The notes below the pieces were generated by a model. That model searched no databases, was not told where the DNA came from, and saw only the letters and a program-made list of their open reading frames with translations. Shown piece by piece: positions 38,891 through 63,622 of a DNA stretch of 64,000 nucleotides. The position numbers were made by a program, and so were the translations under genes. Every line of letters starts with the position of its first letter. The stretch's first letter is position 1. The stretch is from assembly GCA_026545225.1 (NCBI GenBank), contig CM048850.1:2914001-2978000 (forward strand), read 5' to 3'. This stretch comes from Cornus controversa. Its lineage: Eukaryota > Streptophyta > Magnoliopsida > Cornales > Cornaceae.

Positions 38891-39729
38891 TAACTCAATC
38901 CCCCACCACTTCGCCATCCATAATTTGAGTGTGAACACTCTCCACCTCACCGTCGTGCCTCTGCGCCTCAACCACTCTACTCACTAAAGTCAGTTGTGAA
39001 ACAAGTGTGAACAAAGTAGCCGATTCACCACCCTCACTTGTAAGGATCGTGACCATTTTTGACCGATTTTCCTTGATTTTTGTTTAATGTCATATAAATG
39101 CTTTAAATGATTGTTTATATGTTTTAAACATAAAATACATGTTTTAGTAACTTATTTAAGGTTTGGGGAAGTTTTCGGAGCGCGGGCCCCGTGAGCCCAA
39201 AAAATTTGAAAGTATCAGAATGACTCCAAATTCGGAGGGTAGCTTAAATAAAATATTTGACACGTTATGGAATCAATTTTGTGTCAATTGAAGTTACGAA
39301 ACCCAAAAACGGAGCCCGAGAAGGTTTAGTGAAAATGTAGTGGCACTTTTGTAAATAATTGTAGGTCAAAATTCTATAAATAGCAAAGTTAAAGAATTCT
39401 CATTTCTCTCTTCATCCATCAGCCCAAAGAGAGCTTTTCTATATATATGTGTGTGTGTGTGTATATATATGTATCTATATCATCTTCTTCCTTCTCCATT
39501 AAATTAGAATACCTGGGGGTGAGAATTGGGCGACACTGAAGAAGAGAGAAACGGTCTACGTATTGAGGGCTCGAGAATGGTCCAAACAAAATCAATGTCA
39601 TGCCCCGATCCCCTGACTCCCGGGAGACTGGAGGTTAACTCGTACATTAGTCCCAATGGACACTTTTTACCCTTTATAAAGTACCATGCTCTGATACCAA
39701 TTTGTCACGCCCCGGATTTCGGACCTCCG
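38477..39729. repeat. 1,253-bp tandem duplication, copy 1
   Basis: Apparently identical to 39730-40982 over its whole length, as far as I can compare by eye. It contains the right part of the solo Athila-like LTR, the Z spacer piece, the first 557 bp of the Y LTR and the left 133 bp of the next solo LTR. The breakpoint is cctccga/caaaaacg with at most one base of overlap. Confidence 0.93.
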
Positions 39730-40982: not shown

Positions 40983-41304
40983 AGACTCCCCCGGGCTACC
41001 CAATTCCCGAGTGTGAATCTATTCAGTCAACCCATGAACGAACCATTTTAACCTTTAGCTCTTGTGGAAGTTTAATCAACTATATATACGGGTGTATACA
41101 ATATATATCAATGGGCCTCTAACATATGCCCTTCAAATGTTTCCCTCACACAAGCACGGGTACATAACTCTTTGTATGCTCATCAACATAGGCTAAAAAT
41201 AAAACCATTGGAAAGAGGGTTTCAAGACACTCAATTTCAAAAAAAGAATCACTTGATTCGGGTTTGAAAGGACCAAGTTATGTCTATTTCAATATTTTGA
41301 AAAT

Positions 41305-41445
41305 CTGCATTAGTCGACTGATCAGTCGACTTATAGGGCCTCAGTCAACTTATGAAGTGCATTAGTCGACTAATTTGCTGCTCTAGAAAGCTCTAAAATA
41401 CACTGCCAATGTTAGTCGACTTATGGAAAGGAGTAAGTCGACTAA
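41305..41445. repeat. Palindrome cluster AGTCGACT in LTR 'a'
   Basis: Four perfect AGTCGACT-type words (attagtcgactgatcagtcg, attagtcgactaat, gttagtcgactt, taagtcgactaatt) and near-matches in 140 bp. Confidence 0.85.
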
Positions 41446-42304
41446 TTCAGCTTGGAACCCCATTTTTTTCACCTTTTTGACCAAAATTCACCCCAAAACT
41501 CATATCTAAACCTTCCCAACACCTAAAACTCATCCAATAGCATTCAAATAATTTAGAAATGTTATATCACCATACCCATTTATCAATTCACGCATTTGAA
41601 TCACAAGGACCTCATAATCCACATTCTTTCCCATCACCCAATCTCATCTTTATACATATAAGATTCAAATGAACAACACAAGTTACATATATGATAATGT
41701 AACTACAACATTTATATAATCCCAAAAACATTCATTGGGTTCAAAGTATACATTTCAAATCCAAATGGCTTCTAAGTTCATAGTCATTACAAGGATTTCA
41801 TGCATAAGGTCCAAAAATGCTAAAAAATTCAACCATGACTACAACTACATAGATAACGTGCCACAAGCCGGCACGGATAACCAAAAATACAATATCCCAA
41901 CATATATCAAAATGTTACAACATCCAAGAGATAGCAAAAACACTACTAGAGCTCCACTTGGACACTCACGTCCCATCCGTCATCGGCGCTTTATCTGTAA
42001 AATGTTTAGAATAAAGGAGTGAGCACCACTGCGGCTCAGTAAAGGTTCCCCAACCCTCCTAAGTGCCGACCCGACACGACCTACATGAATGCATGCCACT
42101 ACATTACATGTATCATCCAACAAAAACCATGTTCATTCCTAAGCAATGCATATATATAAGAATGCATTAAACACATAACGTGCTTCATAATTTAGAATGG
42201 AAGCATTAACCACACTCTTGTCTCTCTCTCGGACTCAACCCGAGACCCTAGCATGATTGTTGACCAACCACACGACCTGGGCCATTTCCCACACAAGTTC
42301 AGAA

Positions 42305-42600
42305 TTTTCATCACCGAAAACATCGGTCCTACCAGGTAATGAAACTGTTTCAATACGCACCACCGAGAACATCGGTCCTACCAGGTGATTAGATCATTTC
42401 AATACACACCACCGAGAACATCAGTCCCACCAGGTGATGAGATCATTTTTGGAATGCACCACTGAGAACATCAGTCCTACCAAGTGATGAGATATTTTTG
42501 GAATGCACCACTAAGAACATCGGTCCTACCAAGTGATGAGATATCTTCGGACTACACCACCGAGAACATCGATCCTACCAAGTGATGAGACCCTTACAAG
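42305..42600. repeat. About 57-bp minisatellite in LTR 'a'
   Basis: Five to six units with core caccgagaacatcggtccta then ccaggtgatgagat. Confidence 0.88.
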
Positions 42601-43862
42601 ATTTTCACCGGGAACTCCTATCTCCAAGGTGGTCTAACCACTCCAACGCACTTACCGAGTATTAACCTACTCTAGGCAATTCGACCACTTTTCCCCGTTT
42701 TCTCACAGCGGTCCCATATATGCATTTCGAACATATTGTACTCAAGCACTCACTATTCATGCTTCACAATGCATTATCTAGTTATAAAGGAATATAACAT
42801 GCATTTTATCTCCACAAAACCACATATATGTATAACACATCCATATAACCTCTTATATGCATACAACTTCAAAATTAGCATACTTTACTCATGCTACACT
42901 CAATGCATAGATTTAGCATATAGAATTAACATGCATTTATCCACCACATATTCCACATATAATCACATATATGACACAAGGTTAGGCATTTGCACATAAA
43001 CCCCAAATTGAGCACATAAAACCTATATACCCAGTTTATTCCTTTCACACACTTTAACCCATATGCTAAAACCAACACAAAGAACACCCAATGTGCAAAG
43101 ATAGGATTCAAGAGAAGGAGAAAACACAAATTTTCACACCCCTCACCATCCTAAAGCATGTGATACACAACCTACACATCTCCTCTCCACCCGAAACCCT
43201 AGAATCGACAATTAGGAGAGAAGAAGAACCCCTACCTCGAAAATGAAGGCCTTCCAAGCACTTCACCAATTTTCTAGTGGAGTCTACCTTGCCGGATCGC
43301 AACTTTGTTCGGTTCAAACCAAAGCTCTTGCCGTCCCCTACGTATCTCCCTTCTTCGGCGAAACTCGAATCGCACCCGAACAGCTCCGAAATGTAGGGAA
43401 AAGGTAGAGAGGAGAAGATGGAGAGTTTTAGAGAGAGAAGGAGGCGTGAGAAATGGCTGGGATTCTCAGCCACAAATATTTAAAATATCTAGGGCACACA
43501 AAAGACTAAAATGCCCCCAGCCACTTAACGTACCTTCCCGAGCTCCGTTTTTGATTTCAAAAACTCCTACGGTCTTGAAATCACTTCCTCTACTCTCTAA
43601 ATATTTCATCTAAGTCATTCGCAAAAATAAATATTTTTCAAAAATTTTTTGAATTTTCGGGCTCACTTAAGTTGCATCCCGGCCCCAGTTTGACCAAAAA
43701 GTCAAACTTCTCCAATTCTTCTGAAAACTTACCAAAACCCTTAAAACAATTTCTAAACATGTTCCCCACACTCAAAACATGTTAAACACCATCCAAAATG
43801 CATTTATGGCAATTAAAATGCGAAAAATACAAAATTGGCCAAAATTGGTCACGGTCTCTACA

Positions 43863-45021
43863 ATCAATTTCGGACAAGGTTGAGTTTGATGAGAATTTAG
43901 CTTGGAGTTGAGTCGTGTTCTCTCCATCTTATCATTGATTCCTTAAGAATTAATGTGATTTGAATTGGTTAGCATGATTAGAATTGCTAGTCTTACATCT
44001 TTAATTGGGTTAATTCTTTTTAATTGATAATATGGTTGAATTCATGTGTATTTGGATGTGTATCAAAGTGAATTAAGATAATAATTGTGTTTACATGCCT
44101 ATATGTTAGCAATTGTGGTTAAATTTTGCTTACTAACATGAATTGTAGTTGTGGAGACTATGTGGCACAAGATGCAATTTACATGTTTGATAAAATACAT
44201 AATAATGATCCTCTCTATAAATGTTGCATGGATATATGTATGGAAAATACATGTTTTAGCATGGGAATTAAGTGGCTTATGATGCACTTGGAATTGTATG
44301 TCTTGCCATACTTGTAACCTATGTGATTGGTTGTTGATTTTGGGAGTAGGTCAAAAATGAAAAGGGCCCCGAGCCCCGAACTTGCCCAAAGGGGTTTTGT
44401 CTAGACATTCGGGTTAGTAGCCCATGAAGTAGAATATTTGGGTTTTGTCTAGACCCTCGGGTTTTAGCCCGTGAAGTAAAATATTTGAGAAAATTGCTCG
44501 AAAAGCTTTTGACCCGTGACCTACGACTACTCCCACCCTTATGTGATTTTGAATTGAGCTCCAGAATAGTAGTTTTCACAACATGGTATGATAGTTCAAC
44601 GATGCATCGAACTAGCGATGCATCGTAACTTCAATTACGATGCATCATAAAAAGATGATGCATCAAAATGAACATTACGATGCATCGTAATAAGTAACTG
44701 AGGATATAATTCTTGTACAAATATGACCTAGTGATGGACCCACATGCATGTGATGACTTGTATAAGTATATTTATACTCTTAGATATATGATTATGATTA
44801 TACTTCTGCAATTTTGAGATTTCGAATGAATAAACGATTTAAGGGATGAATCACTTGTAATGATCACTCGTATTGATTTCGCACTCTTAACCGGGTGTTG
44901 GATTTAGGTGCATGACAACTTGGTATCGAGATATGGTATCAGATTGAGACGGTTGATGTGAGGTGATGACATGTATTATGATCACCCTCAGTTTTCGAGA
45001 GTCAAAAATCGGGTCATGACA
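43863..45021 (+). repeat. 5' LTR of Y, right part
   Basis: Continues the LTR after solo LTR 'a' (atcaatttcggacaagg onward) and ends gggtcatgaca. It includes a CGATGCATCG cluster (44596-44695) and an inner 'gcatgacaacttggtatcga' end-plus-PBS-like site (44911-44930). Confidence 0.8.
44596..44695. repeat. Palindrome cluster GATGCATC in 5' LTR of Y
   Basis: Five to six CGATGCATCG-like words (aacgatgcatcgaact, agcgatgcatcgtaac, tacgatgcatc and others) in 100 bp. Confidence 0.85.
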
Positions 45022-45261
45022 GATTGGTATTGTCACGCCCTGATTTTTGGTGCTTTCGAAAATCCGAGGGTGAACGGTGTTGTCACCTCTTTCTCTGGAT
45101 CACCAATCACCTATATAATCATAAATCTCATTACAGAAGCTTAAATCATGTGCAAGTACATACGATCGTGCATTGCAAACTCTATAAGTCCCGTTGGAGC
45201 CGATACATGATGTCGGTGCCCGTTCTAAGTCAATTATTAGGTCACAGTCTGGGAGCATTTT

Positions 45262-45440
45262 GATGGATCGAAATGCTCATTTCGATGCATCGAACATGTA
45301 TCGATGAAGTATCAACTAAAAACCACTCTTGGGACTTTTGGCTTTCCAAAAGTCCTTCAGGTTTTTCGATGCATCGATCCTGAGGTTTCGATGCATCGAT
45401 CGTGAGATGCATCGAAATATGGACTTCGATGCATCGAAGT
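45262..45440. repeat. Palindrome cluster CGATGCATCG in LTR 'b'
   Basis: Words ttcgatgcatcga recur at about 45281, 45365, 45389 and 45424, with partial words between (gagatgcatcgaaat). Confidence 0.85.
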
Positions 45441-46613
45441 CCCTCTCGACTGTTTCAATCAGCAACCTATCAAATGACCTAATGTCCATACACTTAACCA
45501 ATTTCAACCCACTAATCTCATTCACTCTTTATATATAAAAAACACATTAAGGAATGCTTAAAATCATTATAATCACAAGCTAAACATGAACTCACATCTC
45601 CAAGCATTATATCTTAGAGTTGGTACACAATAGACTTAAAACCAACGTTCTTCCATTCGAGTCCCAAAGATCATACATAATTCATATATGTTCCTTATAA
45701 GTGAGACTAATGTGCGACAACATGAAACAACCATAATTACAATACTTTCACTCTAGTCCACATGCCACAAGCAGGCATGAACATCTATCTAAATCTCAAA
45801 AAGTAAAAGAACTTCAAGGTCTATCAACCCAATTATGCTTCATCCTCCATTGGAGCCTTATCTAAAAAAGAGTTTGAAAATAAGGGGTGAGTTTATCTTC
45901 TCTCACTCAGTAGGAATGATCCACCCAACTCTACTCTAACTCAGGCAGCCATGCATGGATGTATATGAAATCACTACATGTATATATGACAAATAATCTA
46001 TGTTTTTTACCCTCAAAACAAACAAGTTTTAGAAATCATGCATGATGCTTTACATTTCAAGGCATACATATATATAAATATCAACTTAAACAAGTCACAT
46101 TTCATATATATAACTCACGCTACGTAAATTCAGAAATTAATTCAATTGAGGACTTCGCTTATCACAATCCGTAGGAAGGGTGGACCACATACTCTGCTCA
46201 CACTTTTCGGGCTATTAACCCGACGGAAGCGACACCCGCTTGGCCAAGTTTTGAATATTGCACCCTAGAGTTTGAAACCCTTATTAATTCTCATACAAGC
46301 CCCAAAAATACGCTTTTCACATAATGTATACTTATCACATAAATGCACAAAATCACACAATGCAATGCTTTTATCAAAATAATGCATTTTTTCACTTCAA
46401 CCCAAGCTTGTCACAATATCATTCAATCATCTCATGAAAAATCATAACACTTATGCATTTTGTCAAGAAAATCATATCTTTTATGCACAATTCAACATTG
46501 AAATCATATTTTTATATTTTCACCAAATGAACACAATTTTCTCAAATGCATTCATAGTTTTAACTTCACATATGCAACATATATAAGTCCTAACTGATAT
46601 GCAAGACATATAC

Positions 46614-49593
46614 TGTCACGCCCCAGAACCCGGACCGCCGGGACTCCCCCGGACCGACCCCGAATCCCGAGTGTGAACCCATTCACTTAACCCCATGAGC
46701 AATCTCAATTACACTCAATGCATTAGTATCAAGGTTTGATACCATGCTATAACACCCTGAATTCTAACTCTCGAAGAACCGGAGGTTAAACTGTCTATTT
46801 AGCCCAATAAACCCTCATTCACCGCATAAGCTTAACTCAATTCTTGCATAAGAATGCACCCAAATCTACCTTAACCAATCCCCATGGGCCCTACATCAAA
46901 TCACACACCTTAGTGAGCATTTACTTGCCCACACTTTTAAGAATCACTCACTTTCGAGCCTCAAAGCTTTCTGTGTTTAGAATATGAAACTAAGGCTTAC
47001 ACCATTAGATAGAGAATCCAAAAATACTCAAGTTAAAAAAAAACCACACTCAATTCCGATCTAAAACGAAGAAATTACGTTAAAATGAAGTTTTGGAAAA
47101 TGCTGTGAATAGTAATCTCGATTGATCGAAAATGCACTTCGATTGATCGAAATTGAATCTCGATTGATCGAAATGCTTACGAGATTTTCACCCTTTCGGG
47201 ACCCCAGACCTGCAATATCTTAATTGATCGAAATGGGGGTTTCGATTGATCGAAATTCCTCCTATCTGGACTCTAAAAATCACCATAAATCATCACCCAT
47301 TCGATCAATCGAAATAAGGGTTTCGATTGATCGAAATAGGCATTTCGATTGATCGAAATGCACCTCCCGGGACTTCCAACAACCCTATACATGATCCACA
47401 TGAAGTCCAATCAACATTCTATCATCCTAGAACCCCTCATACATGATTAAAAGCATAAATGAAAGGTTCCAACACCAATCTCACACTCAAGATTACATTC
47501 ATAATTGAATTATACACCAAAATGAATCATTTCTTTCACGAACACAACCCATTCATAATGGAAACATCATGAAATGAATTAATTGCCACCATAGGCATTA
47601 CATAAATTAAACCGTTGTCTTTCCACACCCAACAAGTTTTTGATCCAATACATACATCAAAAGTACATATGTCCAAAGTACAACCACAACTAAAAAGGAA
47701 GTCACATGCCACAAGCCGGCATGGATAGCCACAAAATGTGCAACATCCAAAAGATAGCAAAACCACTACTAGTGTTCCACTTGGACACTCATATCCCATC
47801 CGTCATCGGCGCTTTATCTGTAAAAAAGTTTATAATAAAGGGGTGAGCAACACTGCGGCTTAGTAAAGGTTCCCCAACCCTTTTAAGTGTCAACTCGACA
47901 CCGACCTACATGGAATGCATATGAATACACTACATGCCACATCCACAACCTCACAAACACTTCAATAATTGCAATTAAAGAGAGCTGCACATATTACGAA
48001 TCATGTATAACATGTTCAAACATACAAGCATTAAGAAAGGTAAACACTCTCTCTCTCGGTCCTCATCCGATACCCTACATGATTGGCCCGCTCCGAGGAT
48101 CATGTAACCTTGGACACCTCCGATAACCATCCAATGACCGGGACAACTCCGAAAGGTCATTCTACCATAGCAATATATGGGATTGCCATAGAGTGAGGGG
48201 GAAACTCCGAGGCTCACAAATCTTGGACATTCTCCAATAATTATCCTATGACTGGGACAACTCCGAGGGGTCATTAGTATTGGACATACTTCGATCCTAG
48301 GCATTAAGCCTTAGTATGGCGGGTCCACTCTGAGGGCCATACATAGTGTATAATTTTACCACATTTCACAACACGGTTGGACCACACCGAAGCCCCATGC
48401 ACCTCATTTGCATCATTTTTCCCGCAACTTCCCACATATGCAATATGAATGCATAAACACATGACATTTTATTTTCATGCTTAAATCATGCTCATTGATA
48501 CTAAAAAGAAGTAACAAGCATATTTTCCATCACCACACACCACCTATAGCACATATATGTATAACACATGCATATATCATCTCATATGCATACAACTTCA
48601 AAATTAGCATATTTTACTCATGCTACACTCAATGCATAATTTTAGTACATAGAGCTAACATGCATTCAACAACCAAATTCCCACATATAATCACATATAT
48701 GACACTTGGTACACATTTTTCACATATACACTAAATTGAGCACATAATGCCTATGTATCAATTTCTTACACTCACATACTTCAAACCCACATGCTACCAC
48801 CAACACAATATACACAATTGTGAAAAGATAGGACTCTAGAGAAGAAGAAAACACAACTTTCCACACCTCTCACCATCCTAAAGCATGTGAAACACAACCT
48901 ACACCTCTCTTCTTCACCCGAAACCCTAGAATTGATAATTAGAAGAGAAGAAGAACCCTTACCTCGAAAATGAAGACCTTCCAAGCACTTCACCAAAATT
49001 CTAGTGATGCCTATCTTGCTGAACCACCACTTTGATTGGTTCAAAGGGAAGCCCTAGCCGTCCCCTACGTATCTCCCTCCTTCGGCAAGCCTAAAATCCA
49101 AGCTGAACGGGTCCGAAATGTAGAGAGAAGGGAGAGCTATGAAGATGGATAGTCTTAGAGAGAGAAAGAGGCATGAGATATGGCTAGGAGTCTCAGCCAT
49201 TGATATTTAAAATATCTAGGGCTTGCAAAAAGACCAAAATGCCCCCGGCCACTTAACGTACCCTCCGAGCCTCCTTTTTCGATTCTGAAAACTCCTATGG
49301 TCTCGAAATTACTTCCTCTACTCTCTAAAAATTTCATCTAAGTCATTCTCAAAAATAAATATTTCTGAGAATTTTTCGGATTCTCGGGCCCACTTAAGTC
49401 GTATCTCGGACCCCGGTTTGACCAAAAAGTCAAACTTCTCCAAATCTTCTAAAAACTTACCAAAACCCTTAAAACACTTCCCAAACATGTTTTCCACACT
49501 CAAAACATGTTAAACACCACTCAAAATGCATTATTTATGACAATTATAATGCGAAAAATGCAAAATTGGCCAAAATTGGTCATGGTCTCTACA
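46614..49593 (-). repeat. Solo Gypsy LTR 'c' in LTR 'b'
   Basis: 2,980 bp, TG...CA ends, perfect target duplication TATAC (46609-46613 and 49594-49598). Minus-strand start tgtagagaccatgaccaatt. It contains an inner PBS-like site (ttgatacca region, 46733-46744), a CGATTGATCG palindrome cluster (47117-47360) and a ccgagg-rich repeat block (about 48050-48340). Non-coding; the open frames in it are LTR translations. Confidence 0.9.
47117..47360. repeat. Palindrome cluster CGATTGATCG in LTR 'c'
   Basis: About nine words of the type tttcgattgatcgaaat in 245 bp, same relative place as the clusters in the other LTRs but with a different core. Confidence 0.9.
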
Positions 49594-52500
49594 TATACAT
49601 ATGCACAATCACATATACATATACATATACATATACACAAAATTCTAAACTCAAGAAAGAAATCTCAACCTATCTTTCATGTCACAGATATGAGACCTAT
49701 AGAATTAAAGAAAAGATGAGTCTAGCACCCCTACCTCGAATCATAGGCTTTGAATCCAACTTTGAGAAATCTCAACTTTCTCAACTTCACGAAATGGAGA
49801 CTTTGATCATTTCAAACCGATGCCCTTGGTGTCCCCTACATACTTCCTTTCTTTGAGAATGTCCAAATCACAACCTAACTAGTCCAAAATCTAAAGAGAA
49901 GGGGGAGAGATGAAGTGGGAGAGGTAGAGAGAGAAGGAGATCTGTAAATATGAAATATCCTAGACCTAATTAATATTTATATCACTCCTAGGGGCGCAAA
50001 AAGACCATTTTGCCTCTAGGCCACTTAACGTACCTTCCTGACCTCCATTTTTGATTTCAAAAACTCCATTGGTCTCAAAATCACTTCTTTAACACTCTAA
50101 ATATTTCATTTAAATCATAGTTAAAAATAAAATTTTCCAAAATTTTTGGACCCACTTAACCTCATCCCGGGGCTCCCGTTGACCAAAAAGTCAAACTTTT
50201 CTAAAAGTTTTCAAAACCTTCCAAAACCCTTATACAGCTCTCCAAACATGTTTCCCACATTCAAAACATGTTAAATATTATTTAAAATACACTTAAAGCA
50301 ATAAATGATAAAAATTGAAAAATTAGCCAAAATTGGGCATGACCTCTATATCGCCTTATGGAGATCCGGTACTCTTCACTAAAAAGAATGATGGATCCTT
50401 GCGATTGTGTATTGATTACCAAAAATTAAACTGAGCAACGATCAAGAACAAGTATCCCTTACCAAGAATAAATGACTTGTTTGATCAATTAAAGGGTTTG
50501 AAATGTTTCTCAAAAATTGACTTAAGGTCGAGATATTACCAGTTGAGGGTAAAGGATGAAGATATACTGAAGATCGCTTTTTGCACTCGATATGGACACT
50601 ACGAGTTCCTAGTGATCCCATTTGGGTTGACGAATGTACCGACAACTTTCATGGACTTGATGAATCGAGTCTTTAGTGCCTACTTGGATAGATTTGTTGT
50701 GGTGTTTGTGGATGACATGCTAGTGTACTCATCATCATCGGAGGAGCATGAAGAACACCTGAGGATGGTGTTACAACTTTTGAGGAAACATCGATTGTAT
50801 GCCAAGTATGAGAAATGTGAATTTTGGCTAACGGAGGTGAAGTTCCTCAGGCATGTAGTGTCGGGAGGAGGAGTCTCCGTGGATCCTTCAAAGGTTGAGG
50901 CTATGATGAGTTGGGAAAGACCGAAGAGCGTGTTTGAGATCCGTAGTTTCTTAGATTTGGTCGGGTACTGTAGATGCTTTGTGAGGGATTTCTCATGATT
51001 AGTGGCACCTATGACACGACTTACTCAGAAGGAGGTAAAGTTTGTGTGGAGTGAGGCTTGTGAACATACATTCATGGAGCTGAATAGTAGACTGACTTCT
51101 GCTCCAATCTTGATTATTCCCGAACATGGTTTAGGGTATGTGATCTATTGTGATGCTTCACGAGACAGTTTGGGTTGTGTATTGATGCAAATCGAGAGAG
51201 TAGTGGCATATGGCTCCCGACAGTTGAAGACACACGAGCAAAATTACCCAACTCATGATTTGGAGTTAGCGGCGGTAATTTTTGCATTGAAAGTGTGGAG
51301 GCATTACCTATAGGGGAAAAAGTTTGAAGTGTTCTCCGATCACAAGAGTTTGAAGTACATTTTCTCACAAAAGAACTTGAACATGAGGTAACAGAGATGG
51401 GTGGAGTATATGGAGGATTATGACTTTGATCTACAATACCACCCGGGATAGGCAAACATTGTAGTCGATGCCTTGAGTAGAAAGTCACATGGTAGCTTGG
51501 CAAGCGTTGCAATCTGTGAGTGGAAAATGATGGAAGATATCCTAAAAATGGGGTTATATTTAAGTGATGATGGGGAGCAGCAACGTTGTTCACACTTATT
51601 GCTCAACCAACACTAGTGAGTAGGGTGATTGAGGAGCAATAGCGGGATAGTGAGATAAAAACCATTCGTACTCGGATTTTGAGCAACGAAGTGGTAGAGG
51701 GCTGGACAGTACATTCCGATGGAGGCTTGAGATTCAAAGGGAGATGGTTGTACCATTACCCTGTAGGGATGATATACTTAGAGAGTTTCATCACTCTAGA
51801 CTTGCGGTACACCCCGGTGGAATCAAAATGTACCACAATATGTGACGACAGTATTGGTGGAAAGGGATGAAGAAAGTTGTTGCTCAATTTGTGGCAAAAT
51901 GCCTTACTTGTCAGCAAGTGAAGGCAGAACATCAGAGATCGATGGGTTTGTTACAATCGTTACCAATAGCGATGTGGAAGTGGGAACATGTCACCATGGA
52001 CTTCATGACGAGACTCCCGAGGTTGAGGAAGAGCCAAGACGCTGTATGGGTTGTTGTTGACAGATTGACCAAAGTGGCTCATTTCTTTCTATTCGGGTGA
52101 CTGATGAAGTGGATGCATTGAGTCAGTTGTACATTGAGCAGATACTGAGAATTCATGGTGTATCGGTTTCTATTGTGTTAGATAGAGACCCACGGTTCAT
52201 GTCACGATTTTGGCAAAGTTTTTAGGCAGCTCTTGACACCGATCTCTATTTTAGTACAGCCTTTCACCCTCAGACAGATGGTCAGTCTGAGAGGACTATT
52301 CAGATTCTTGAGGATATGCTCCGGGCTTGTACTTTAGATTTTCATGGTAGTTGGGAAGATTACCTACCATTGGTGGATTTTTCTTACAACAATAGCTATC
52401 AAGCTTGCATCGAGATGGCACATTTTGAGACTTTGTATGGTAGACCTTGTAGGTTGCCCGTGTGTTGGACCAAAGTTGGTGAGATAGTGGCTTTGGGATC

Positions 52501-53084
52501 TGACATAGTATGAGAGAGCACAGAAAATATCAAGTTGATAAGAAAACGGTTGATTATAGCTCAAAGTTGTCAGAAGAGCTATTCTGATAAGAGGCGGCGT
52601 CCTTTGGCTTTTGAGGTGGGGGACCATGTCTTCCTAAAGGTCTCGCCACGGAAGGGATTGATGCCATTTGGGCGTAGTGGCAAGCTATTGCCACGTTTCA
52701 ATGGTTCATTTGAAATTCTAGAAAGTGTTGGTGAGGTTGCATACCGCTTGGCATTGCCACCATAAATGTCAAGTGTGCACAATGTGTTTCATGTCTCCAT
52801 GTTGAGAAAGTATGAACCGGGTCCTTCACATGTACTTGACTGGGCGAATCTTGAGGTGGGTGAAGACGTATCATATGAGGAGGGACCAGTAGAGATCATA
52901 GACTCTAGAGAGCAAATGCTTCGAGGCAAGACCATTCCATTAGTCAACGTACTTTGGAGACACCATGAAGTTGAGGAGGCTATGTGGGAGCGGGAACAAA
53001 AAGTTCACTCAAAGTATCCCGAGTTATTTGTTAATTAAGATACGTCTTAGTTTTGAGGACAAAATTCCTTGAAGGTTGGGAGGT

Positions 53085-56000
53085 TGTAAGGACCGTGACC
53101 ATTTTTGGTCGATTTTCCTTTAATTTCATTTATTGTCATAATGATGTTTTAAATAATTTTTTATCTATTTTAAATGTAAAATACATGTTTAGATAACTTA
53201 TTTAAGGATTGGAAAAATTTTCAGAGCATTTAGTAAAAGTTGACTTTTTCGGGTTCGGTTAACTCGGGCGCACGAGCCCCATTGACCCAAAAAATTCAAA
53301 AGTGTCAGAATGATTTCAAATTGTAAGGGTAGCTTAAATAAAATATTAGACATGCAACGGAATTGATTTCGTGTCAATTGGAGTTACGAAACTCCGAAAA
53401 CAAGCTGGGAAGGTTTAGGGAAAATGTCATGGCAATTTTTTGAATAAGTGTAGGTCATATTACTTTAAATAGTAAAGTTAGAGATTTTCATCTCATTCCT
53501 TCTCCTTTATCAGCCGTGAGGGTCTCAAAGTGAGAATTAGAAGAAGAGAGAAACGATCTACGTGTTGAGGGCTCAAGATTGGTCCAATCAAAATCATCTT
53601 TGGACAAAGTTGGGTTTTTAGGAGATTTTAGCTTGGAATTGAGGTAAGGGTACTCTCTCCATCTTATCATCGATTCCTTAGGAATTGATGTGAGTTGTAT
53701 TGTTTAGCATGTTTAGGATTACTAGAATGTGAGTCTTGCACTTTTAATTGGGTCAATTCATGATAATTGATGATGTTGTTGAACTCATGTGTATTAAATT
53801 GTGTTTATATGTTTAAGTGTTGTTAATGGTGGAGGAATGTTGCCTTATAACATGATTTATAATGTAGAGACCATGTTGTGTATAATGCATGTTATGTGTT
53901 TGATAATAGGCATGAACGTGATTATCTCCTTCAATGATATATTGTTAAGTACATGAAATTACATGTTTTAGCATGTGAATTAGGTGACTATGATGTACTC
54001 GAATTATGGAATTAATGAATTGTTTTATGCATGAGATTACATGTGTTAACATAGAAGTTAAGTGCCTTATGATGCACTTAAATTATAGAATTAATGCATT
54101 GCTTTATACATGAGATTACATGTGTTAGCATGGAAGTTAAGTGGCTTATGATACACTTGAATCATGGAATTGTTGCATTGTTATATGCATGAGATTATAT
54201 GTTTTAGCATAAAATTTAAGTGGCTTATAATGCGCTTGAAATTGTATGTGTTGCCATACTTGAACCTATGTGATTGGTTGTTAATTTTGGGAGGTGGTCG
54301 GAAAGTAATGAGGGCTTAGATCCTTAGGGTGCGAATCCCCAAAATTAGCCAAGGTAGTTACTCTAGACCATCGGGTTAGTAGCCCATAAAGTAAGATTTG
54401 GTTCCTTCTAAACCCTCGGTTGATTACCCATCAAAATAGATATTACGGATAATTGGCTCATTTGGCGATTATCCGGTGGTTCTACGACAACTCCCACTCT
54501 TGTATGATTTCGAAACTTATGTGGTTTGGTGCTTAAGTGTTATTGTTAAATTGTGATAATGATAATGGTATTGCGTGGCATTTTCCTTGAAAGTGAGTAA
54601 TGTTGAACATGCTTTCCATTTAAGCTTTGAATCGAAATCTTTTTGAATATGTGCCTCGAAGTATGCCATATAGTGTAGGAATGCCATGATAACTTTTCAC
54701 GTGCATTGGAAGCATGCCATATAGTATAGGGATGTCATGCTTGCATTCATGTAGGTCGCATCGAGTCGATGCATAGGTTGGTTTGGATATTTCTACTAAG
54801 CCGCCATGGTGCTCACCCCTTCCCCTAATCATTTTTACAGATAAGGCACCGGTCGTGGATGGAGCTTGAGGAGCCTGAGAGATGATATATATATTTCTTC
54901 GTTATCATTTATGCTATGTTTTCATTTGCCATGCTAGGGCATTTATCGAACCTGTAATTCAAATTATATATGTGTGAGCCATATTTGGCACTTGAAACCA
55001 ATTAAGGACAAGATATGAAATTTATGTTTAAGTTGAACCTTTTTCTTTATATAGTAGAATTTCAATTCTATAGTTTATTTCTACATGTTCAACTTGTGAG
55101 AATGGTCATGTTGATGGATTATGTTCGCATTAATGTCTAAGCATGTGTATGATTTAAAGGTTAATCATATGGAATGTATGAATGCTCCTGGACGAAAATT
55201 TAAGGCACTAGAATGGCCATTAGGGGGGGACACATGCCCAAAAGTGTCCATTTTGAATTCAAGGTATGAATGGAATTTATATGTATAGAATGAGAATTGT
55301 GTTAGCTTCAATTTGATAGGTCATGGGCCTTGTTTGTATTTAAATTGAGTAAGATATGCATGTTCTAGTATAGGAGTTCATAATCTGACCTATGACCATT
55401 GATTTGCGTGTAATCTAGGTTGTGAGTTAGATTTTTAGGTGATTAAAATTGAGTTGGAAACTAGACATGTTGAGGATGACCCATGCAAAATTTCAAGTTA
55501 AACAGACTTATAGATTGTGAGATACTCAAAATTAAAGTTAAGGTGAAGTTTTGGCTAAGTTAATGTTGCAGGATTTTGCTGGGCATTGATGGCAATCGGT
55601 CCCCATTATTTACGGTGATCAATTGCCCTTGTAAAAGGCCAAAAACCAGCCCCAGTCGGCCTTAGGCGATCAATGCCCCTTTTCACAGCATGCATTATTC
55701 AACTGTGTTTTTACCAAACTTCAAACAACATATCTTCTTCATTTCAAATCAGATTTAGATGATTCTTTTTTTGAAATTGAATATTTTTAAACTCTCTTTC
55801 CAATAGTTTCATTTTAATACATAGATTAGAAATTTATAAGAAGTTATGTACTCGCACTTGTGTGATGGAATCACTTGAAGTGTTATATGGTTGAGGCCCA
55901 TAGGGATTAGTTGATGTTGAGTTGTATCTATATATATGTGCGTGTATATATATATCTATACATGTGTATATATATTATTAAGCTTCCGTGGAAAGTAAAG

Positions 56001-56393
56001 GGTAAAATGATTCATTAGGGTTTAAATGGACGAATTCACCTCGGTTTTTGGGAGTTGGGAATCAGGGTGTGACAACTTGGTATCAGAGCACTAGGTTAGA
56101 ATACCTAGGGACGACGGGTAATGGTTAAGTCATGTGTAGAATTTAACAATCGGGTTTGAACACCTTGGACGAAGGGTTAGGGTTCGACTATATGTGTGCT
56201 AAAAAGTGTGCTTAGACTTGAGAATGCAATTTTATGTGCAATATACTAGAGTGCTTACATGATTGGTGTTACATGATAAATTGTGGAATAACTTAGCATA
56301 TCTTATCAAGAAAGTAAAGGGTAAAATGGTTCATTAGGGTTTAAATAGACGGATTCACCTCGGTTTCCAAGAGTCGGGAATCGGGATGTGACA
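53085..56393 (+). repeat. 3' LTR of X
   Basis: About 3.3 kb, tgtaaggaccgtgacc to gggatgtgaca. Near its right end it has an inner end (gtgtgaca, to 56074) followed by a perfect TGGTATCAGAGC (56078-56089), then about 300 bp and the outer end. A GATCAAT-type word cluster lies at 55584-55685. Long LTRs fit Tekay/Del-type chromoviruses (family knowledge). Confidence 0.8.
55584..55685. repeat. Word cluster GATCAAT in LTR of X
   Basis: Three to four degenerate words (ggcaatcggtcccc, ggtgatcaattgcccc, ggcgatcaatgcccc) at the position where sister LTRs carry palindromes. Confidence 0.6.
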
Positions 56394-56737
56394 ATATCGC
56401 TTGGCATTGCCACTACAAATGTCAAGTGTACATAATGTGTTTCATGTTTCCATGTTAAGGAGGTATGAACCGGATCCTTCACATGTACTTGATTGGACGA
56501 ATCTTGAGGTGGGTGAAGATGTATCATATGCGGAGGGATCGATAGAGATTATGGACTTAAGAGAACATGTGCTTCGAGGTAAGACCATTCTATTGGTCAA
56601 AGTATTTTGGAGACACCACGGAGTCAAGGAGGCTACGTGGGAGTGGGAACAAGAAGTTTGTTCAAAATATCCTTAGTTATTAGCTACTTGAGGTTCGTCT
56701 TAATTTCGAGGATGAAATTCCTTGAAGATTGGAAGGT

Positions 56738-59221
56738 TGTAAGGATCGTGACCATTTTTAATAGATTTTTCTTGATTTTTGTTTATTGTCATATAAATGC
56801 TTTAAATGATTGTTCATGTGTTTTAAACATAAAATACATATTTTAGGAACTTATTTAAGGTTTGGGGAAGTTTTTGGAGTACGGGCCCAGAAAATTCAAA
56901 AGTGTCAGAATGACTTCAAATTCAGATGATAACTTAAATAAAATATTTGCCGCGTTACGGAATCGATTTCATGTCAATTGGAGTTTCAAAACTCAAGAAC
57001 TGAGCCCGAGAAGGTTTAGTAAAAATGTAGTGGCACTTTTGTAAATTAGTGTAGGTCAAAATTCTATAAATAGCAAAGTTAGAGAATTCTCATTTCTCTC
57101 TTCATCCATCAACCGTAAGAGAGCTTATATATATATATATAACAAAGTTAGAGAATTTCATTTCTCTTTTCATCCATCAACCGTAAGAGAGCTTATATAT
57201 ACATATGTATATATATGTATGTATATATATATGTATGTATCTATATCATCTTTTTCTTTCTCTATTGAATTAGAAGACCTTGGGTTGAGAATTGGGCGAC
57301 GCCGAAGAAAAGAGAAACGGTCTACGCATTGGGGGCTCGATATTGGTCCAAACAAAATTAATTTTGGACAAGGTTGATTTTGGTGAGAATTTAGCTTGGA
57401 GTTGAGGTAGGGGTGTTTTCTCCATCTTATTATCGATTCCTTAGAAATTGATGTGATTTGAATTGGTTAGCATGATTAGAATTGCTAGTTTTGCATCTTT
57501 AGTTGGGTTAATTCTTGTTAATTGATAATATGGTTGAATTCATGTGTATTTGAATGTGTATTAGAGTGAATTAAGATAATAATTGTGTTTACATGCCTAT
57601 ATGTTAGCAATTGTGGTTAAATGTTGCTTACTAACACAAATTGTAGTTGTGGAGACTATGTGGCACAAGATGCATTTTACATGTTTGATAGAATACATAA
57701 TAATGATCCTCTCTATAAATGTTGCATGGATATATGTATGGAAAATATATGTTTTAGCATGGGAATCAAGTGGTTTATGATGCACTTGGAATTGTATGTC
57801 TCGCCATACTTGTAACCTATGTGATTGGTTGTTGATTTTAGGAGTAGGTCGGAAATGAAAAGGGCGGCTTCGAGCCCAAAACTTGCCCAAGTGGGTTTCG
57901 TCTAGACCTTCGGGTTAGTAACCCGTGAAGTAGAATATTTGGGTTTTGTCTAGACCCTCAGGTTTTAGCCCGTGCAGTAGAATATTTAGGAAAATTGCTC
58001 AAAAAGTTCTTGACTCGCGACCTACGACTACTCCCACCCTTATGTGATTTCGAAGCTTATGTGACTTTGTGTTTAAATCTTGTTGTTGTAATGTGATATT
58101 CATGTTGGTGCATACGTGACCTTCTACTTTGAATGAGTATTGTTGTACTTATAATCTATGAAGTGTTGAATGGATATTTGCTTGAATATGTGTTTTGTCA
58201 TATGTCATGTAGTGTGTAGAAATGCCATGCTAGCATATCACAAACATTGGAAGTATGTTATATAGTATAGGGATACCATGTTTATAAACCTCCCCCAAAT
58301 ATTTTTACAGATAAGGCACCGGTCGTTGATGGAGCTTGAGATGCACGGGTTGTGGGAATTACCTCTTGTTATTGTTGTTTACTTATGTTTCTGTATGCCA
58401 TGTGTTAGGCAATTCATTGGTTTTGTAATCCAATTATGAGACTTGGACCTATGTTTTCAAGGTTTTAGCTATTATGATTACAATTTAGGGATTTAGATAC
58501 CTTATGTTATTTTCTGGACTTGATACGTTATCAATGATGTAATTGAACTTCGGATATGAATTTCCATGTTTTATTCACATGTTTAGTTCACGTTGGTATA
58601 TATATATTGATGCATGTTTGAATACAAATAGAAATGGATGCCTTGGAAACAACCTGACCAAAATAGGCCACTTTAGTCGAGGCATTACGATGGTTCGTAA
58701 CCCCTGTTACGATGCATCGTAATGCTACGATGTATCGTATTGATTATGTCGATGCATCGAAATAAGTGAATGGAATTGAGCTCCAAAATAGTAGGTTTCG
58801 CAACATGTTATGATAGTTCAGCGATGCATCGAACTAGCGATGCATCGTAAAGAGACGATGCATCGAAATGAACATTACGATGCATCGTAATAAGCAACTG
58901 AGGATAGAATTCATGTACACATATGACCTTGTGATGGGCCCACATGTATGTTGTGACTTGTATAAGTATGCCTATACTCTTAGATGTATGATTATGATTA
59001 TGCTTCCGCGATTTTGATATTTCGAATGAATAAATGATTTAAGGGATGGATCACTTGTAATGATCACTCGTATCGATTCCGTACTCTTAACTGGGTGTTA
59101 GATTTGGGTGCGTGACAACTTGGTATCGAGATATGGTATCACAGTGAGATGGTCGATGTGAGGTGATGGCGTGTATCATGATCACCCTTGGTTTCTGGGA
59201 GTTGAAAATCATGTCGTGGCA
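56738..59221 (+). repeat. 3' LTR of Y
   Basis: 2,484 bp. It shares with the Y 5' LTR the gaattgagctcc.aaatagtag block and the CGATGCATCG cluster, which the LTR of X lacks; this pairs it with the LTR at 39039-45021. Inner end cgtgaca then tggtatcgagat at 59121-59132. (TA)n runs at 57128-57142 and about 57195-57245. Confidence 0.8.
58694..58885. repeat. Palindrome cluster CGATGCATCG in 3' LTR of Y
   Basis: Seven to eight words such as tacgatgcatcgtaatg, gtcgatgcatcgaaat and gacgatgcatcgaaat in 190 bp. Confidence 0.88.
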
Positions 59222-60978
59222 TCACTAAAGGATAATTCCATTTCTGAGATATCTTTCATCATTTTCCACTCACAGATTGTAATACTAGCTAAGGTACCAT
59301 GTGACTTTCTGCTCAAGGCATCGACAACCACATTGGCCTTCCCCGGGTGATACTGAAGATCAAATTGTAGTCTTCCATGTACTCCACCCACCTCCTTTGC
59401 CTCATATTCAAGTCCTTCTATGTGAAAAGGTACTTCAAGCTCTTGTGATTGAAGAAAACTTCAAACTTTTTCCCGTACAAATAATGCCTCCATATCTTTA
59501 ATGCAAAAATCACCGCTGCTAACTCCAAGTCGTGAGTGGGGTAGTTTTGCTCGTGGATCTTCAATTGTTGGGAACCGTATACAACAACCCTCTCGGTTTG
59601 CATTAGTACACATCCCAATCCATCTCATGAATTGTCACAGTAGATGACATAACCCAAACCACATTCGGGGATAATCAATATCGGAGCACTCGTCAATCTA
59701 CTTTTTAATTCCATTTAAGAATGTCCGCAATCATCATTTTACACAAACTTAACTCCTTTACAAGTAAGTTTGATTATCGGCGTTGCTAACTCTGAAAAGT
59801 CCTTTACGAAACACCGGTACTAACCCGTCAATCCCAAGAAGCTATGTATCTCAAATACGTTCTTTAGCCTCTCCCAATTCATTACTCCTTCAATCTTAGA
59901 AGGGTCTACCAAAACTCATCATTCCAACACCACGTGTCCTAGGAGCTTCAATTCTGTTAGCCAAAATTAGCACTTTTCATATTTAACATTCAAACGGTGC
60001 TCCCTCAAAATCTGTAGTACCGTCCTCAAATGAATCTCATGCTCCTCCATAGAAGAGGAGTACACAAGAATATCGTCTACAAATACCACCACAAATTTGT
60101 CCAAGTACTCACTGAAGACTCAGTTCATCAAATCCATGAACGCCACCGGTGATTTCGTCAAACCAAATGGTATCACTAGAAACTCGTAATGGCCATATCT
60201 AGTCCAAAAATTTGTCTTCGGAATCTCCTCTTCATTTACCCTCAGCTGATAATACCCTGACCTCAAGTCGATTTTCGAAAAGCAAGTTGAACCCTTAAGT
60301 TGATCAAACAAGTCATATATCCTTGGCAAAGGATACTTGTTCTTAACTGTTGCTTGGTTCAACTTTCGGTAGTCTATGCATAACCGCAAGGATCTGTCAA
60401 AATCTGTAGTACATCACCTTGGAGCTCCCCAAGGTGATGTACTAGGTCGTACATATCCCTTGTCTAACAATTCTTGCAACTGATCTTTCAACTCCGTCAA
60501 CTTTGCTGGAGCCATTCGATACGGTGCCATAGATATGGGCATGGTACCGGGAGCTAGATCAATGCTAAATACTACATCTCTCATTGGAGGTAACTCTGTC
60601 AAGTCTCCCAGAAACACATCTAAGAACTCATAAACTACCGATGGAAACCCTCCACAAGTCACAACCTCATCATCCTCTGCTAACAAGCTAGCCAGGAAAC
60701 ACCCAATCCCGTTCAGAGCACCGAAACTAAGGAAGGAATGTATAAATCATCCAACTTTCCCACGAAATAAAAGCAATCACTCTCCTACAGAGACAGTCAA
60801 TTGTGGCTCTAAATGTAGACAGCCAATCAACACCTAGAATGACATCAAAAACAGTCATACTAGTAGCACAAAGTCGAACATTAGCGAGCGTCCCGCAACC
60901 TCGATCTCGCAAGATCGACACACTCTACCCAGGGTAACTCTACCCCCAACAGGCATATCAATGGACAATAGTGACTTC

Positions 60979-63622
60979 TATCACGCCTCAAAATTCGAGA
61001 CACCGGAGACTCCATCACCGGTTTGAATCCTGAAGGTGAGCCCATGTCAACCACTCATGACTCTCATACACCATTCCCATTTTGATACGATGTTGTCACG
61101 CCCCAAAATTCCGTGCTCGTAACGGTACAAGAAACGGGGGTGAACTATTCACTTCATCCCACAAGTCATCGATAAGCTTGTTTAAAACCTATACATTTGT
61201 AATTCATAACTCTAAAACCATGCATTTCATATACATAATAAAAAAATCATACCTTGAATACATTCCTCAAGAGTGGCAACTTGTCACACATAAAACTACT
61301 CAAATCCAAAACTCAACTGGTTGTGTGATTGGAACTTGAAATGTAAATCTACACCATAGGAAAAGGGTTTAAAAAAACTCGATTTTAAAAAGAGAATCAT
61401 ATGATTCGGATTTAAGACGACAAAGTTATGCCTATTTCAAAGTATTTAAAAATCTAAAATAGTGAACAGTTTACTGTCCTGAGGGAATAGTAGACTGTTT
61501 TGACGTTCTAAAAAGCTCAAAAGTGCTCTGTTGAAAATAGTCGACTTATCTAAATAGAACAGTCGATTATTTCCACCTGGAAACCCCTTTTTAGAATTTT
61601 TTTTGTCCAAAATTTACACCAATTCTCATACACAAACATCTTCAACTACTCATCCAATCACATCCATATCATATAAACATTAATGAAAAATCATAAAAAT
61701 GCCATTTAAATGGAAACATGCTAGGTTTATATATAGTCAAGTCCAAAACCATAATTTAAAACATATGTGCTTATATACAATATTCCAAAAATGAAATGTA
61801 ATCCTCGTTACACATGTCCTAATGCACCTAGTCCACATTTTGAACGTGTATACACACAAAATAACCTAGAAGAAGTCTTCTAACTTTATATCCAACTCAC
61901 AGTTGTGCCTCATCAACCACTTCCTTGCCATGTCCTAAAAATGTTAGTGTAGGGGGATGAGCAATTTTAACGGGCTCAAGGTTAACGTAATGTGCAATCT
62001 ATTTAAGGCCACATTTCATATTCAATGCATAAAACACAACTCATGCTCGATAAATATGTGTCATGCTCCCTAGCATTCTAGTCACAAGGTTAAACGCTCA
62101 ATTCGTTCACGTCATGTAATATACATCAATTATAACTTGACAACCACATAAATGCATTTCATACACATAACACATTTACATCATATATGTAACATATGAC
62201 AATAATAAAAAACGGATAAACATCAGCACAAGTCATGTAATTCACTTAAGTTACACATAAGACACAACACACTTACTCTTTCTCGAATTTGGTTCACACT
62301 CACTCACACACAAGATACGTACCAAAGTCCCATATCTTAAGTTCATGATTATTACAAGTTACTAAACCATGCAGTTACCACCCATCTTGCGTAAGTTTGA
62401 GGTTTTTCAACCCCAGAAGATATGTTTCCCTACTACTTTCCTATAAGCCACTTCCGAGACACCCCACACTAACCCAAAATAGTTCACATTTTGCATCCAC
62501 AATCACAACTTTGATGCATTGAACCCATTTCATATCCTAGTTCACTTCTAGCATGTCAAGCAAGAATCATAAGAACATATACCTAAGCTTAACCCCAAAA
62601 GTAGGTTTTCATCATTTTTCCCCCAACATTCCCATATATGTCATACATATTTCATTTTGCACATATAAGCAATCTATGTAATATGAAGTATACATTAATC
62701 ACTTCTAGCAAGAGAAACATATATACACCATTTCCAAACATGATTTTCATCACAAAACATATATTTTCATATATCTCATAAAAGAAAACATCTATTTTAT
62801 GCTTATACATGAAATTTCACTTGAATTAAAAGACACAACACATGCCCCATACCTCAATAGCTATAGTCTGAAGTTATCCCACAGTTTCACAATTCTCAAA
62901 GTTGTTTACTAGTGACTGTATTCGATTCCAAGTGATGCCTTCGCCAAGTAGAACACACATCCCTTAGTCGGCACCTTCCTAATCAAACCCAAAGACCCTA
63001 AAAATCTAGAGAGAAGAAATAGATCATAAAATCTTCCACTGGACCAAAATGCTCTGAATTAACTTTTCAATCCATAGAGATTGTAGAGAGTGTCGAGGTG
63101 AACAACAATGATGTTCAAAACTTTTTCCAAATCTAAGCCTAGGTTAGAGGAATTCTAGAGATAAGAAGAAGAACACGAAGAAGAGAGAGAAGAGAAGTTC
63201 ACAACTATTTAGAGAGAGGAAGTAAGCTGTAAATATCTGTCTCCCAGATATTTATAAGCCTTATGGTGCAAAAAAATCAAAACGCCCCTAGTTCACTTAA
63301 CATACTTTCCCGAGCTCCATTTTTGAATCCGAAAGAAGTTATGGATTCAAAATCATTTCTATGTCTCTCAAAATATTCTAATTGGTATATAACCAGAAAT
63401 AAAATTTTTTAAAAAAATATCCAAATTTCTGGGCCCCGACCCGTTTCTCGTTGACCCAAAATTTTTAACTTCATCCAAATGTTCTGAAAACTTTCAAAAA
63501 CCTCTAAACATGTTTCCAAACATGTGTTCCACTCTCAAAAAATCCATAACAACAATTAAAAGCATTTATGATGAAAATGATAAAAATTCAAAAATTGGTC
63601 AAATTTGGTTCCGGTCCCTACA
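60979..63622 (-). repeat. Solo Gypsy LTR 'd' in Z
   Basis: About 2,644 bp. Minus-strand start tgtagggaccggaaccaaat; the other end is tatcacgcctcaaaattc. Flanks ACTTC (60974-60978) and ACTCC (63623-63627) match at four of five bases. An inner tgtcacgccccaaaattcc lies at 61094. It interrupts Z between Gag and protease. Degenerate AGTCGACT words lie at 61465-61575. Confidence 0.75.
61465..61575. repeat. Palindrome-like cluster GTCGACT/GTAGACT in LTR 'd'
   Basis: Words atagtagactgtt, atagtcgacttat and cagtcgattatt, a decayed form of the AGTCGACT cluster of LTR 'a', at the matching LTR position. Confidence 0.65.

What the first reader, a model, noticed from the sequence alone, without database searches (positions are those of the whole stretch)
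41305..61575. Related Gypsy LTRs carry a swap-in palindrome cassette at one fixed place
Seven LTRs in 39-64 kb share ends (tgtcacgcc.../...ggtcacggtctctaca) and general layout. At about 230-610 bp from the inner 3' LTR end each holds a 100-250 bp cluster of one short palindrome. The word differs: AGTCGACT in LTR 'a', decayed AGTCGACT in 'd', CGATGCATCG in 'b' and both LTRs of Y, CGATTGATCG in 'c', GATCAAT-type in X. Within one LTR all copies share the same core, so the words seem to change together while the surrounding LTR stays recognisable. Both LTRs of Y share the word, as expected if it is fixed at transposition. Inference: a fast-changing binding or structural module (dimeric factor site, RNA stem series, or a silencing escape site).
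Basis: seen in the sequence. Interest (0 to 1): 0.75.

Follow-up and report, generated by a model that had tools for sequence, protein, structure and literature searches.

The report
Palindrome arrays in Gypsy retrotransposon LTRs
Related plant jumping genes each carry an evenly spaced row of one short mirror-symmetric DNA word near the end of their long repeats, with different words in different lineages, which points to a shuffled binding or RNA-pairing site like one already known in another retrotransposon group.

Summary
A blind scan found palindrome-word clusters at only 7 places in 64 kb, 5 of them in these LTRs, and none in 40 Markov windows. Words are segregated: AGTCGACT in a and d, CGATGCATCG in b and both Y LTRs, CGATCAATCG in c. 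The arrays end 230-505 bp before the LTR 3' end.

Corrections and additions. (1) The coding strand puts the arrays 1.5-2.0 kb downstream of a TATA-type box conserved in 7 of 7 U3s, so probably in the transcribed leader near the primer site. (2) The flanks are not constant: the LTRs are mosaics, and array types cut across U3 clades. (3) Copies recur every 21-22 bp in 13 of 24 spacings, across three words.

Best reading: a modular array of dyad sites for a dimeric DNA-binding factor, exchanged by recombination and resized by whole units. RNA pairing is the main rival; its covariation tests were negative or inconclusive. Palindromic LTR arrays are known from Sireviruses (Copia), so this is a new variant of a known kind, in a Ty3/gypsy element.

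The parts
40956..43862 (-). LTR a (2907 bp), followed in coding sense by an initiator-Met-type PBS (40941-40955) and about 107 bp in all ending in an LTR-like end; TSD ATCAA 40844-40848 / 43863-43867
   Evidence: ends and flanks
41312..41443 (-). array a: AGTCGACT, 6 copies (5 exact)
45031..46613 (-). LTR b, 3' piece (coding sense); last 5 bp are the TSD of c
49594..50350 (-). LTR b, 5' piece with U3; first 5 bp are the TSD of c
45261..45436 (-). array b: CGATGCATCG, 6 copies (4 exact); one copy lies in a 22-nt perfect palindrome (45421-45442)
46614..49593 (-). solo LTR c (2980 bp), TSD TATAC, inserted in LTR b
47119..47355 (-). array c: CGATCAATCG (coding sense), 8 copies (6 exact, 1 inverted, 1 with 2 mismatches)
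40292..40848 (+). Y left LTR, 5' piece
43863..45021 (+). Y left LTR, 3' piece
44600..44687 (+). array Yl: CGATGCATCG, 5 copies (3 exact)
56738..59221 (+). Y right LTR (2484 bp)
58688..58887 (+). array Yr: CGATGCATCG, 8 copies (6 exact); differs from Yl by one exact 22-nt gap in the aligned part
53085..56074 (+). LTR X (2990 bp); PBS acttggtatcagagc follows at 56075-56089
55616..55676 (+). X candidate site: two GATCAAT-like stretches, not a clear array
61094..63622 (-). LTR d (2529 bp)
61468..61568 (-). array d: decayed AGTCGACT, 4 copies (1 exact), partly in register with copies of array a
43477..43484 (-). TATA-type box of LTR a (TTTAAATA, LTR position 379); equivalents at 328-383 in c, d, X, Yr, b and Yl
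57404..57413 (+). splice-donor-like GAGGTAGGGG in Yr; equivalents in a, b, c, d, X, not in Yl (intron guessed, not shown)
58302..58317 (+). splice-acceptor-like TTTTTACAGATAAGGC in Yr; equivalents in a, b (variant), c, X; not found in d; the region is missing in Yl

Best explanation
Each LTR (X apart) carries an array of 4 to 8 copies of a dyad-symmetric site, often set at a pitch of about two DNA turns, in the 3' quarter of a Ty3/gypsy LTR that is probably transcribed. The most likely working is at the DNA level: each palindrome is bound by a homodimeric (or symmetric) host factor, and copies one pitch apart lie on the same helix face. The array thus acts as an enhancer or insulator of the element from within the transcribed leader. 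The array evolves as a module. Whole LTR blocks with different arrays are exchanged by recombination between co-packaged RNAs, and arrays grow or shrink by one 22-nt unit. Shown by calculation: arrays, segregated words, pitch, position, mosaic LTRs, one unit-length difference. Inferred: transcription from the TATA-type box, protein binding, effect on expression, and the recombination route.
For: Adjacent spacings of 21-22 bp: 13 of 24 (a 2 of 5, b 3 of 5, Yr 3 of 7, c 5 of 7) in four LTRs bearing three words, against 1.3 expected and 0 of 20,000 random placements. Pair distances also favour a 10.5-bp phase (R 0.35, P 0.003). Word positions agree 0.90-0.96 between copies of one LTR, while positions 4-6 outside fall to 0.22-0.38, so the word rather than a long repeat unit is kept. 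Of 18 mismatches in 37 copies 9 hit the central two positions (3.9 expected, P 0.007), as for half-sites around a free centre; this weakens to 7 of 16 (P 0.04) without the inverted c copy and 4 of 9 (P 0.09) without the relatives d and Yl. In c the centre CA is not self-complementary, yet copies keep one orientation in 7 of 8; this suits half-sites better than full RNA pairing. CpG o/e is raised in the arrays of c (1.83 vs 0.58 in the rest), Yr (2.01 vs 0.72) and b (1.42 vs 0.61), less in d (0.89 vs 0.54) and a (0.88 vs 0.68), not in X (0.63 vs 0.60); Sirevirus arrays border CpG islands. Mosaic blocks. Unit-length difference Yl/Yr.
Against: No factor is known to bind these words, and none could be searched for here. 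A 22-bp pitch can also come from tandem duplication with no helical meaning; other spacings (16, 18, 19, 50, 59) are off-phase. The array starts 1.5-2.0 kb downstream of the TATA-type box, unlike Sirevirus arrays, which lie upstream of it. The copies were chosen by likeness to the word (at most 2 mismatches), which inflates word identity. The arrays are also the most strongly folding RNA of the LTR in 5 of 6 LTRs.
Confidence: 0.43

Rival explanations
1. RNA module: self-complementary words in the 5' leader near the PBS pair within and between genomic RNAs, serving dimerisation, cyclisation or packaging. The word is arbitrary as long as all copies in one RNA share it, which would explain why words are uniform within and differ between lineages.
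For: Position between the TATA-type box and the PBS. Folding z-scores -4.3 (a), -7.8 (b), -10.0 (Yr), -6.7 (c), -3.8 (d); an array window has the lowest z of the LTR in 5 of 6 LTRs (b: 3' piece only), X rank 3. Yeast Ty3 and Ty1 RNAs use or are proposed to use short 5' palindromes for dimerisation (PMC11381356 abstract and passages; PMC5454406 one passage). A Copia element in this window has three TGACGTCA palindromes about 55-90 nt after its PBS, though its fold is only moderately better than shuffles (z -2.5, 3 of 200 as good).
Against: Palindromes give good folding by themselves. Complementarity across spacers is no higher than after permutation within the LTR (41 of 64 vs 40.6, P 0.49; with G-U 46 vs 46.3), and neither is symmetry of each copy's own flanks (64 of 112 vs 63.0, P 0.41). 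A named a-d helix shows one compensatory pair and five broken ones of 15, and the shuffle control is passed by 245 of 500. The c word has a non-complementary centre.
Confidence: 0.25
2. By-product: short palindromic units spread by slippage or template switching during reverse transcription; words differ because each lineage amplified its own unit, and there is no function.
For: Unit-length gap between the Y LTRs; local 21-22 bp tandem repeats in b and c; the window has other tandem arrays, e.g. at 4.5-5.4 kb.
Against: Spacers have diverged to chance while words are kept, which neutral amplification does not explain, though the copies were picked by word. Palindromic words at one place in LTRs with three words, and the same pitch, ask for a common cause.
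Confidence: 0.2
3. Silencing module: the arrays fold into hairpins that feed host small-RNA pathways; word change is escape from small RNAs, on the lines of what is argued for maize Sireviruses.
For: Same kind of structure as the maize Sirevirus palindromes, which are small-RNA hotspots (passages in PMC10760457 and PMC5311732); strong folding.
Against: No small-RNA data for this plant were at hand. Such a module harms the element, so it explains an effect rather than why the arrays are kept.
Confidence: 0.1

Closest known systems
Sirevirus (Ty1/copia) palindromic repeated motifs, RM (PMC2829016: section 9 read, passages of the rest)
   Same: Clusters of one palindromic word per element, different words in most elements, fairly homogeneous within most elements, in the LTR; RM clusters border CpG islands; words include ACAATCGATTGT (Tnd-1) and CGGTCGACCG (Vitis).
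   Different: Other superfamily (Copia). Arrays start 200-400 bp from the start of the 3' LTR and are drawn upstream of the TATA box; 12 of 13 words share a CGG-CCG core. Here they lie in the last quarter of the LTR, downstream of the TATA-type box, with no CGG-CCG core. That paper calls the RM Sirevirus-specific.
Maize Sirevirus LTR palindromes as small-RNA hotspots (Bousios et al. 2016; not held; seen only as cited)
   Same: Palindrome-rich, fast-evolving LTR region with strong predicted folding.
   Different: Small-RNA link untested here; Copia; [quoted passage not shown]
Repeated, sometimes palindromic, cis-regulatory arrays of several TE families (one passage of PMC10760457)
   Same: General design: arrays of repeats, some palindromic, as regulatory regions.
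   Different: The passage only cites them; none was compared here.
Tnt1 superfamily U3 modules (PMC1838419, abstract and passages)
   Same: Regulatory LTR module that differs between subfamilies while other parts stay alike (modular evolution).
   Different: The module is U3 of a Copia element; here a and c share U3 and differ in the 3' block.
Ty3 and Ty1 dimerisation palindromes (PMC11381356, abstract and passages; PMC5454406, one passage)
   Same: Short palindromes in the 5' part of the retrotransposon RNA.
   Different: Single short palindromes in yeast (6 nt in Ty3), not arrays of 8-10 nt words at a recurrent pitch; function here untested.
Drosophila gypsy Su(Hw) array (recalled; search listed nothing)
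   Same: Array of factor sites in the transcribed leader of a Ty3/gypsy element.
   Different: Sites not palindromic as I recall; insect; factor known.

Membership tests
Plant Ty3/gypsy LTR retrotransposon | RT of the Ty3/gypsy type, RNase H, integrase, protease | tested here: met
   RVT_1 1.5e-25, RT_RNaseH_2 6.5e-27, Integrase_H2C2 1e-8 in pieces between the LTRs; RVT_1 2.5e-14 and RVP_2 1.1e-7 beside LTR d; 9 of 10 pieces matched some domain
Plant Ty3/gypsy LTR retrotransposon | TG...CA LTRs with TSD and tRNA-type PBS | tested here: met
   TSD TATAC for c and ATCAA for a; PBS TTGGTATCAGAGC after a and X
Chromovirus, Tekay/Del lineage | Chromodomain at the end of integrase | tested here: inconclusive
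   Chromo 17.9 bits, E 0.0029, below the curated 25.1, in 1 of 2 pieces
Chromovirus, Tekay/Del lineage | RT phylogeny placing it in Tekay | not tested
   no reference set used; the lineage name is from memory
Sirevirus palindromic RM | Ty1/copia Sirevirus host element | tested here: not met
   RT is RVT_1 and the flanking domains are of gypsy type; the Copia element elsewhere in the window gives RVT_2
Sirevirus palindromic RM | At least 8 copies of one palindrome in the element | tested here: inconclusive
   4 to 8 copies per LTR; full elements not examined
Sirevirus palindromic RM | Position upstream of the TATA box in the upper half of the LTR | tested here: not met
   arrays lie downstream of the TATA-type box, in the last quarter
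Sirevirus palindromic RM | CGG-CCG core (12 of 13 elements) | tested here: not met
   words are AGTCGACT, CGATGCATCG, CGATCAATCG
Retroelement RNA dimerisation site | Palindrome paired between two RNAs | not testable with these tools
   needs RNA probing; covariation negative or inconclusive

The most novel reading that the evidence does not exclude
The array is a lineage-specific RNA code. Any word will do as long as it is self-complementary and repeated, so RNAs of one subfamily pair with their own kind (dimerise, co-package, recombine) and avoid others. New words arise or are acquired by block exchange, creating retrotransposon 'mating types' within one genome.
Probability: 0.15. Interest if true: 0.85.

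Novelty: new variant of a known kind. Interest (0 to 1): 0.5.

Why it matters
Palindromic LTR arrays were described as Sirevirus-specific (PMC2829016). Finding the same design in a Ty3/gypsy family, with another core, another place in the LTR and a shared 22-bp pitch across words, suggests convergent use of dyad-site arrays by plant retrotransposons. Because the word is uniform within and different between lineages, and U3 and array recombine, the system offers a natural set of swaps for testing whether such arrays act as DNA (factor binding) or RNA (pairing, small RNAs).

Tried and rejected
Rejected: 'only the word changes' - the flanks change too. Rejected: chance. Not taken as support for RNA pairing: folding z-scores alone, since any palindrome array folds well; the direct tests gave no support or were inconclusive. 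Tried and empty: own genome (none held); relatives in viral contigs by protein (4 stretches matched a pattern, none confirmed) and by LTR-PBS pattern (0), in genome contigs (64 stretches, none confirmed); Rfam over 39-64 kb at gathering scores (0). The pairwise identities used end-free alignment and are too high for unrelated pairs (shuffled mean 70%); I rely on its z-scores and instead. The leader intron is a guess from motifs; one review passage says plant LTR retrotransposons generally lack introns, with exceptions (PMC12786077, passages).

Rows dropped: for spacing d and Yl were left out as relatives of a and Yr, X because it has no clear array, and d's fifth weak match (61415). In one search X and that match were left out of the mismatch count; one search repeats that count without the inverted c copy and without d and Yl, which weakens it. 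On recount I lowered the best explanation from 0.45 to 0.43.
Full report
What is there. The window looks like plant DNA (inferred from its content; no genome is held for it). At 39-64 kb it is a nest of related LTRs with Ty3/gypsy coding remnants: RVT_1, RNase H, integrase zinc domain and Tf2-1-type SH3 domain in pieces between the LTRs, and RVT_1 and protease beside LTR d; 9 of 10 pieces matched a domain. A chromodomain-like match stays below its cut-off (17.9 of 25.1 bits), so 'chromovirus, Tekay/Del-like' is a lead from memory and not a shown membership. The PBS (TTGGTATCAGAGC) next to LTRs a and X fixes their coding strand, and likeness of the LTRs that of the rest: a, b, c and d read on the minus strand, X and both Y LTRs on the plus strand. 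Solo LTR c (TSD TATAC) sits inside LTR b, and the element holding LTR a (TSD ATCAA) sits inside the left Y LTR.

The arrays. Two blind scans find palindrome clusters far beyond chance. Copies and exact copies: a 6/5, d 4/1, b 6/4, Yl 5/3, Yr 8/6, c 8/6. Counting copies within one mismatch, no array holds a copy of another array's word. X has only two GATCAAT-like stretches with 2 mismatches and is not a clear array.

Position. In coding sense every LTR with its 5' part (a, b, c, d, X, Yl, Yr; 7 of 7) has TATAAATA or TTTAAATA at 328-383 bp from the LTR start, in one aligned column. A donor-like GAGGTARGGG (GAGGTATGGG in d) follows at 557-768 in 6 of 7 LTRs, not in Yl. An acceptor-like TTTTTACAGATAARGC or a close variant lies 839-1243 bp before the LTR end in 5 of the 6 LTRs that keep the region, not in d. 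The arrays of a, b, c and Yr lie after the acceptor. All arrays start 1.5-2.0 kb downstream of the TATA-type box and end 230-505 bp before the LTR 3' end. If that box is the promoter, the arrays are in the transcribed leader, close to the PBS. The intron is a guess from motifs, and plant LTR retrotransposons generally lack introns (passage in PMC12786077).

Pitch. Among the 24 adjacent spacings in a, b, Yr and c (d and Yl left out as relatives), 13 are 21 or 22 bp; random placement gives 1.3 on average and never 13 in 20,000 trials. The same pitch goes with three different words. In the aligned part of the arrays the two Y LTRs differ by one gap of exactly 22 nt, so arrays can change by whole units. 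A 10.5-bp phase is also favoured over random placement (P 0.003), but spacings of 16, 18 and 19 do not fit it.

Conservation inside arrays. Between copies of one LTR (a, b, Yr, c) the word agrees at 0.90-0.96 per position, the three flanking bases at 0.51-0.83, and bases 4-6 at 0.22-0.38, about chance. The copies were chosen by likeness to the word, so the first figure is biased upward. Of 18 mismatches in 37 copies, 9 lie at the two central positions against 3.9 expected (P 0.007). Without the inverted c copy it is 7 of 16 (P 0.04), and without d and Yl as well 4 of 9 (P 0.09), so this is a hint only.

Mosaic LTRs. U3: a-c 89%, a-b 76%, a-d 68%, X-Y 78%, a-X 60%, b-Y 58%. Downstream of the array: a-X 71%, a-d 63%, a-c 56%; the order of a-c and a-X is reversed in 1000 of 1000 bootstraps, while a-d over a-c has 921 of 1000. 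The 200 nt downstream is homologous among a, c, d and X (z 8 to 37) and shows no clear homology in the 9 pairs with b or Y (z -1.3 to 2.0). The 200 nt upstream is related for a-d and weakly for d-b only, of 15 pairs. So a and d share word and both flanks although their U3s are far apart; b and Y share the word but neither U3 clade nor flanks; a and c share U3 but not the word; a and X are closest downstream but X lacks a clear array. Arrays and U3s are shuffled as blocks.

RNA. Scanned in 150-nt windows, an array window is the most strongly folding one of the LTR in a, c, d, Yr and b (3' piece), and rank 3 in X. Folding of palindrome arrays is expected. A test for pair-specific complementarity across spacers was negative (41 of 64 vs 40.6 by permutation), as was one for symmetry of each copy's own flanks (64 of 112 vs 63.0). 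A named a-d helix showed one compensatory pair, nine invariant and five broken ones of 15 (two sequences only, inconclusive).

Reading. The pitch, the kept half-sites and the possibly freer centre fit an array of dyad sites for a symmetric DNA-binding factor, placed in the transcribed part of the LTR and exchanged by recombination. RNA pairing for dimerisation or packaging is the main rival because of the position near the PBS and the arbitrary but uniform words. Neither was tested by experiment.

Known background. Sireviruses (Ty1/copia) carry clusters of one palindromic word per element in the LTR, upstream of the TATA box, with different words in most elements (PMC2829016, section 9 read). 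In maize these are small-RNA hotspots and evolve fast (passages in PMC10760457 and PMC5311732; the original 2016 paper is not held). The first of these also cites palindromic regulatory arrays in several other TE families. Tnt1 shows modular U3 exchange (PMC1838419, abstract and passages). Ty3 and Ty1 RNA are held to dimerise through short 5' palindromes (PMC11381356, PMC5454406; abstract and passages). I found no description of such arrays in plant Ty3/gypsy LTRs in searches (listings, plus passages of PMC6911290, PMC8282616, PMC12786077 and PMC11302176; open-licence papers only), which is weak evidence of absence.

Verdict. A real, strongly non-random feature; a new variant of a known kind; function unproven.

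Noticed in passing
22105-22143 (minus strand), in a Copia element 17165-22395: Three TGACGTCA palindromes in 39 bp in the leader about 55-90 nt after the PBS, part of a predicted 13-bp hairpin (fold z -2.5, 3 of 200 shuffles as good); one of two palindrome-word clusters outside the Gypsy LTRs in the blind scan.
   Followed up: partly
4200-5950: Tandem arrays of 35, 48-54 and 102 bp periods rich in GCGATCGGC, TAAGGCCTTA and TGATCA words; no BLAST match to the Gypsy LTRs of this family in the self-comparison.
   Followed up: no
38477-40983: Tandem duplication of 1253 bp, 100% identical over 1254 bp, including part of the left Y LTR and the first 28 bp of LTR a: very recent or an assembly artefact.
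   Followed up: no
59120-59141, 44920-44941, 46737-46745: PBS-like relics inside the LTR 3' ends of both Y LTRs (-102 and -89) and c (-132), as if the LTR end had moved into the former primer site and leader.
   Followed up: partly
42312-42590 and 44392-44487: Mid-LTR tandem repeats (49 bp in a, 48 bp in Y) inside the presumed intron region; by eye the unit could form a hairpin, not folded.
   Followed up: no
53085-56400: LTR X is preceded by a pol end and followed by a PBS, leader and a second LTR-end-like fragment at about 56338-56393: a product of unequal recombination or a nested remnant (read by eye).
   Followed up: no
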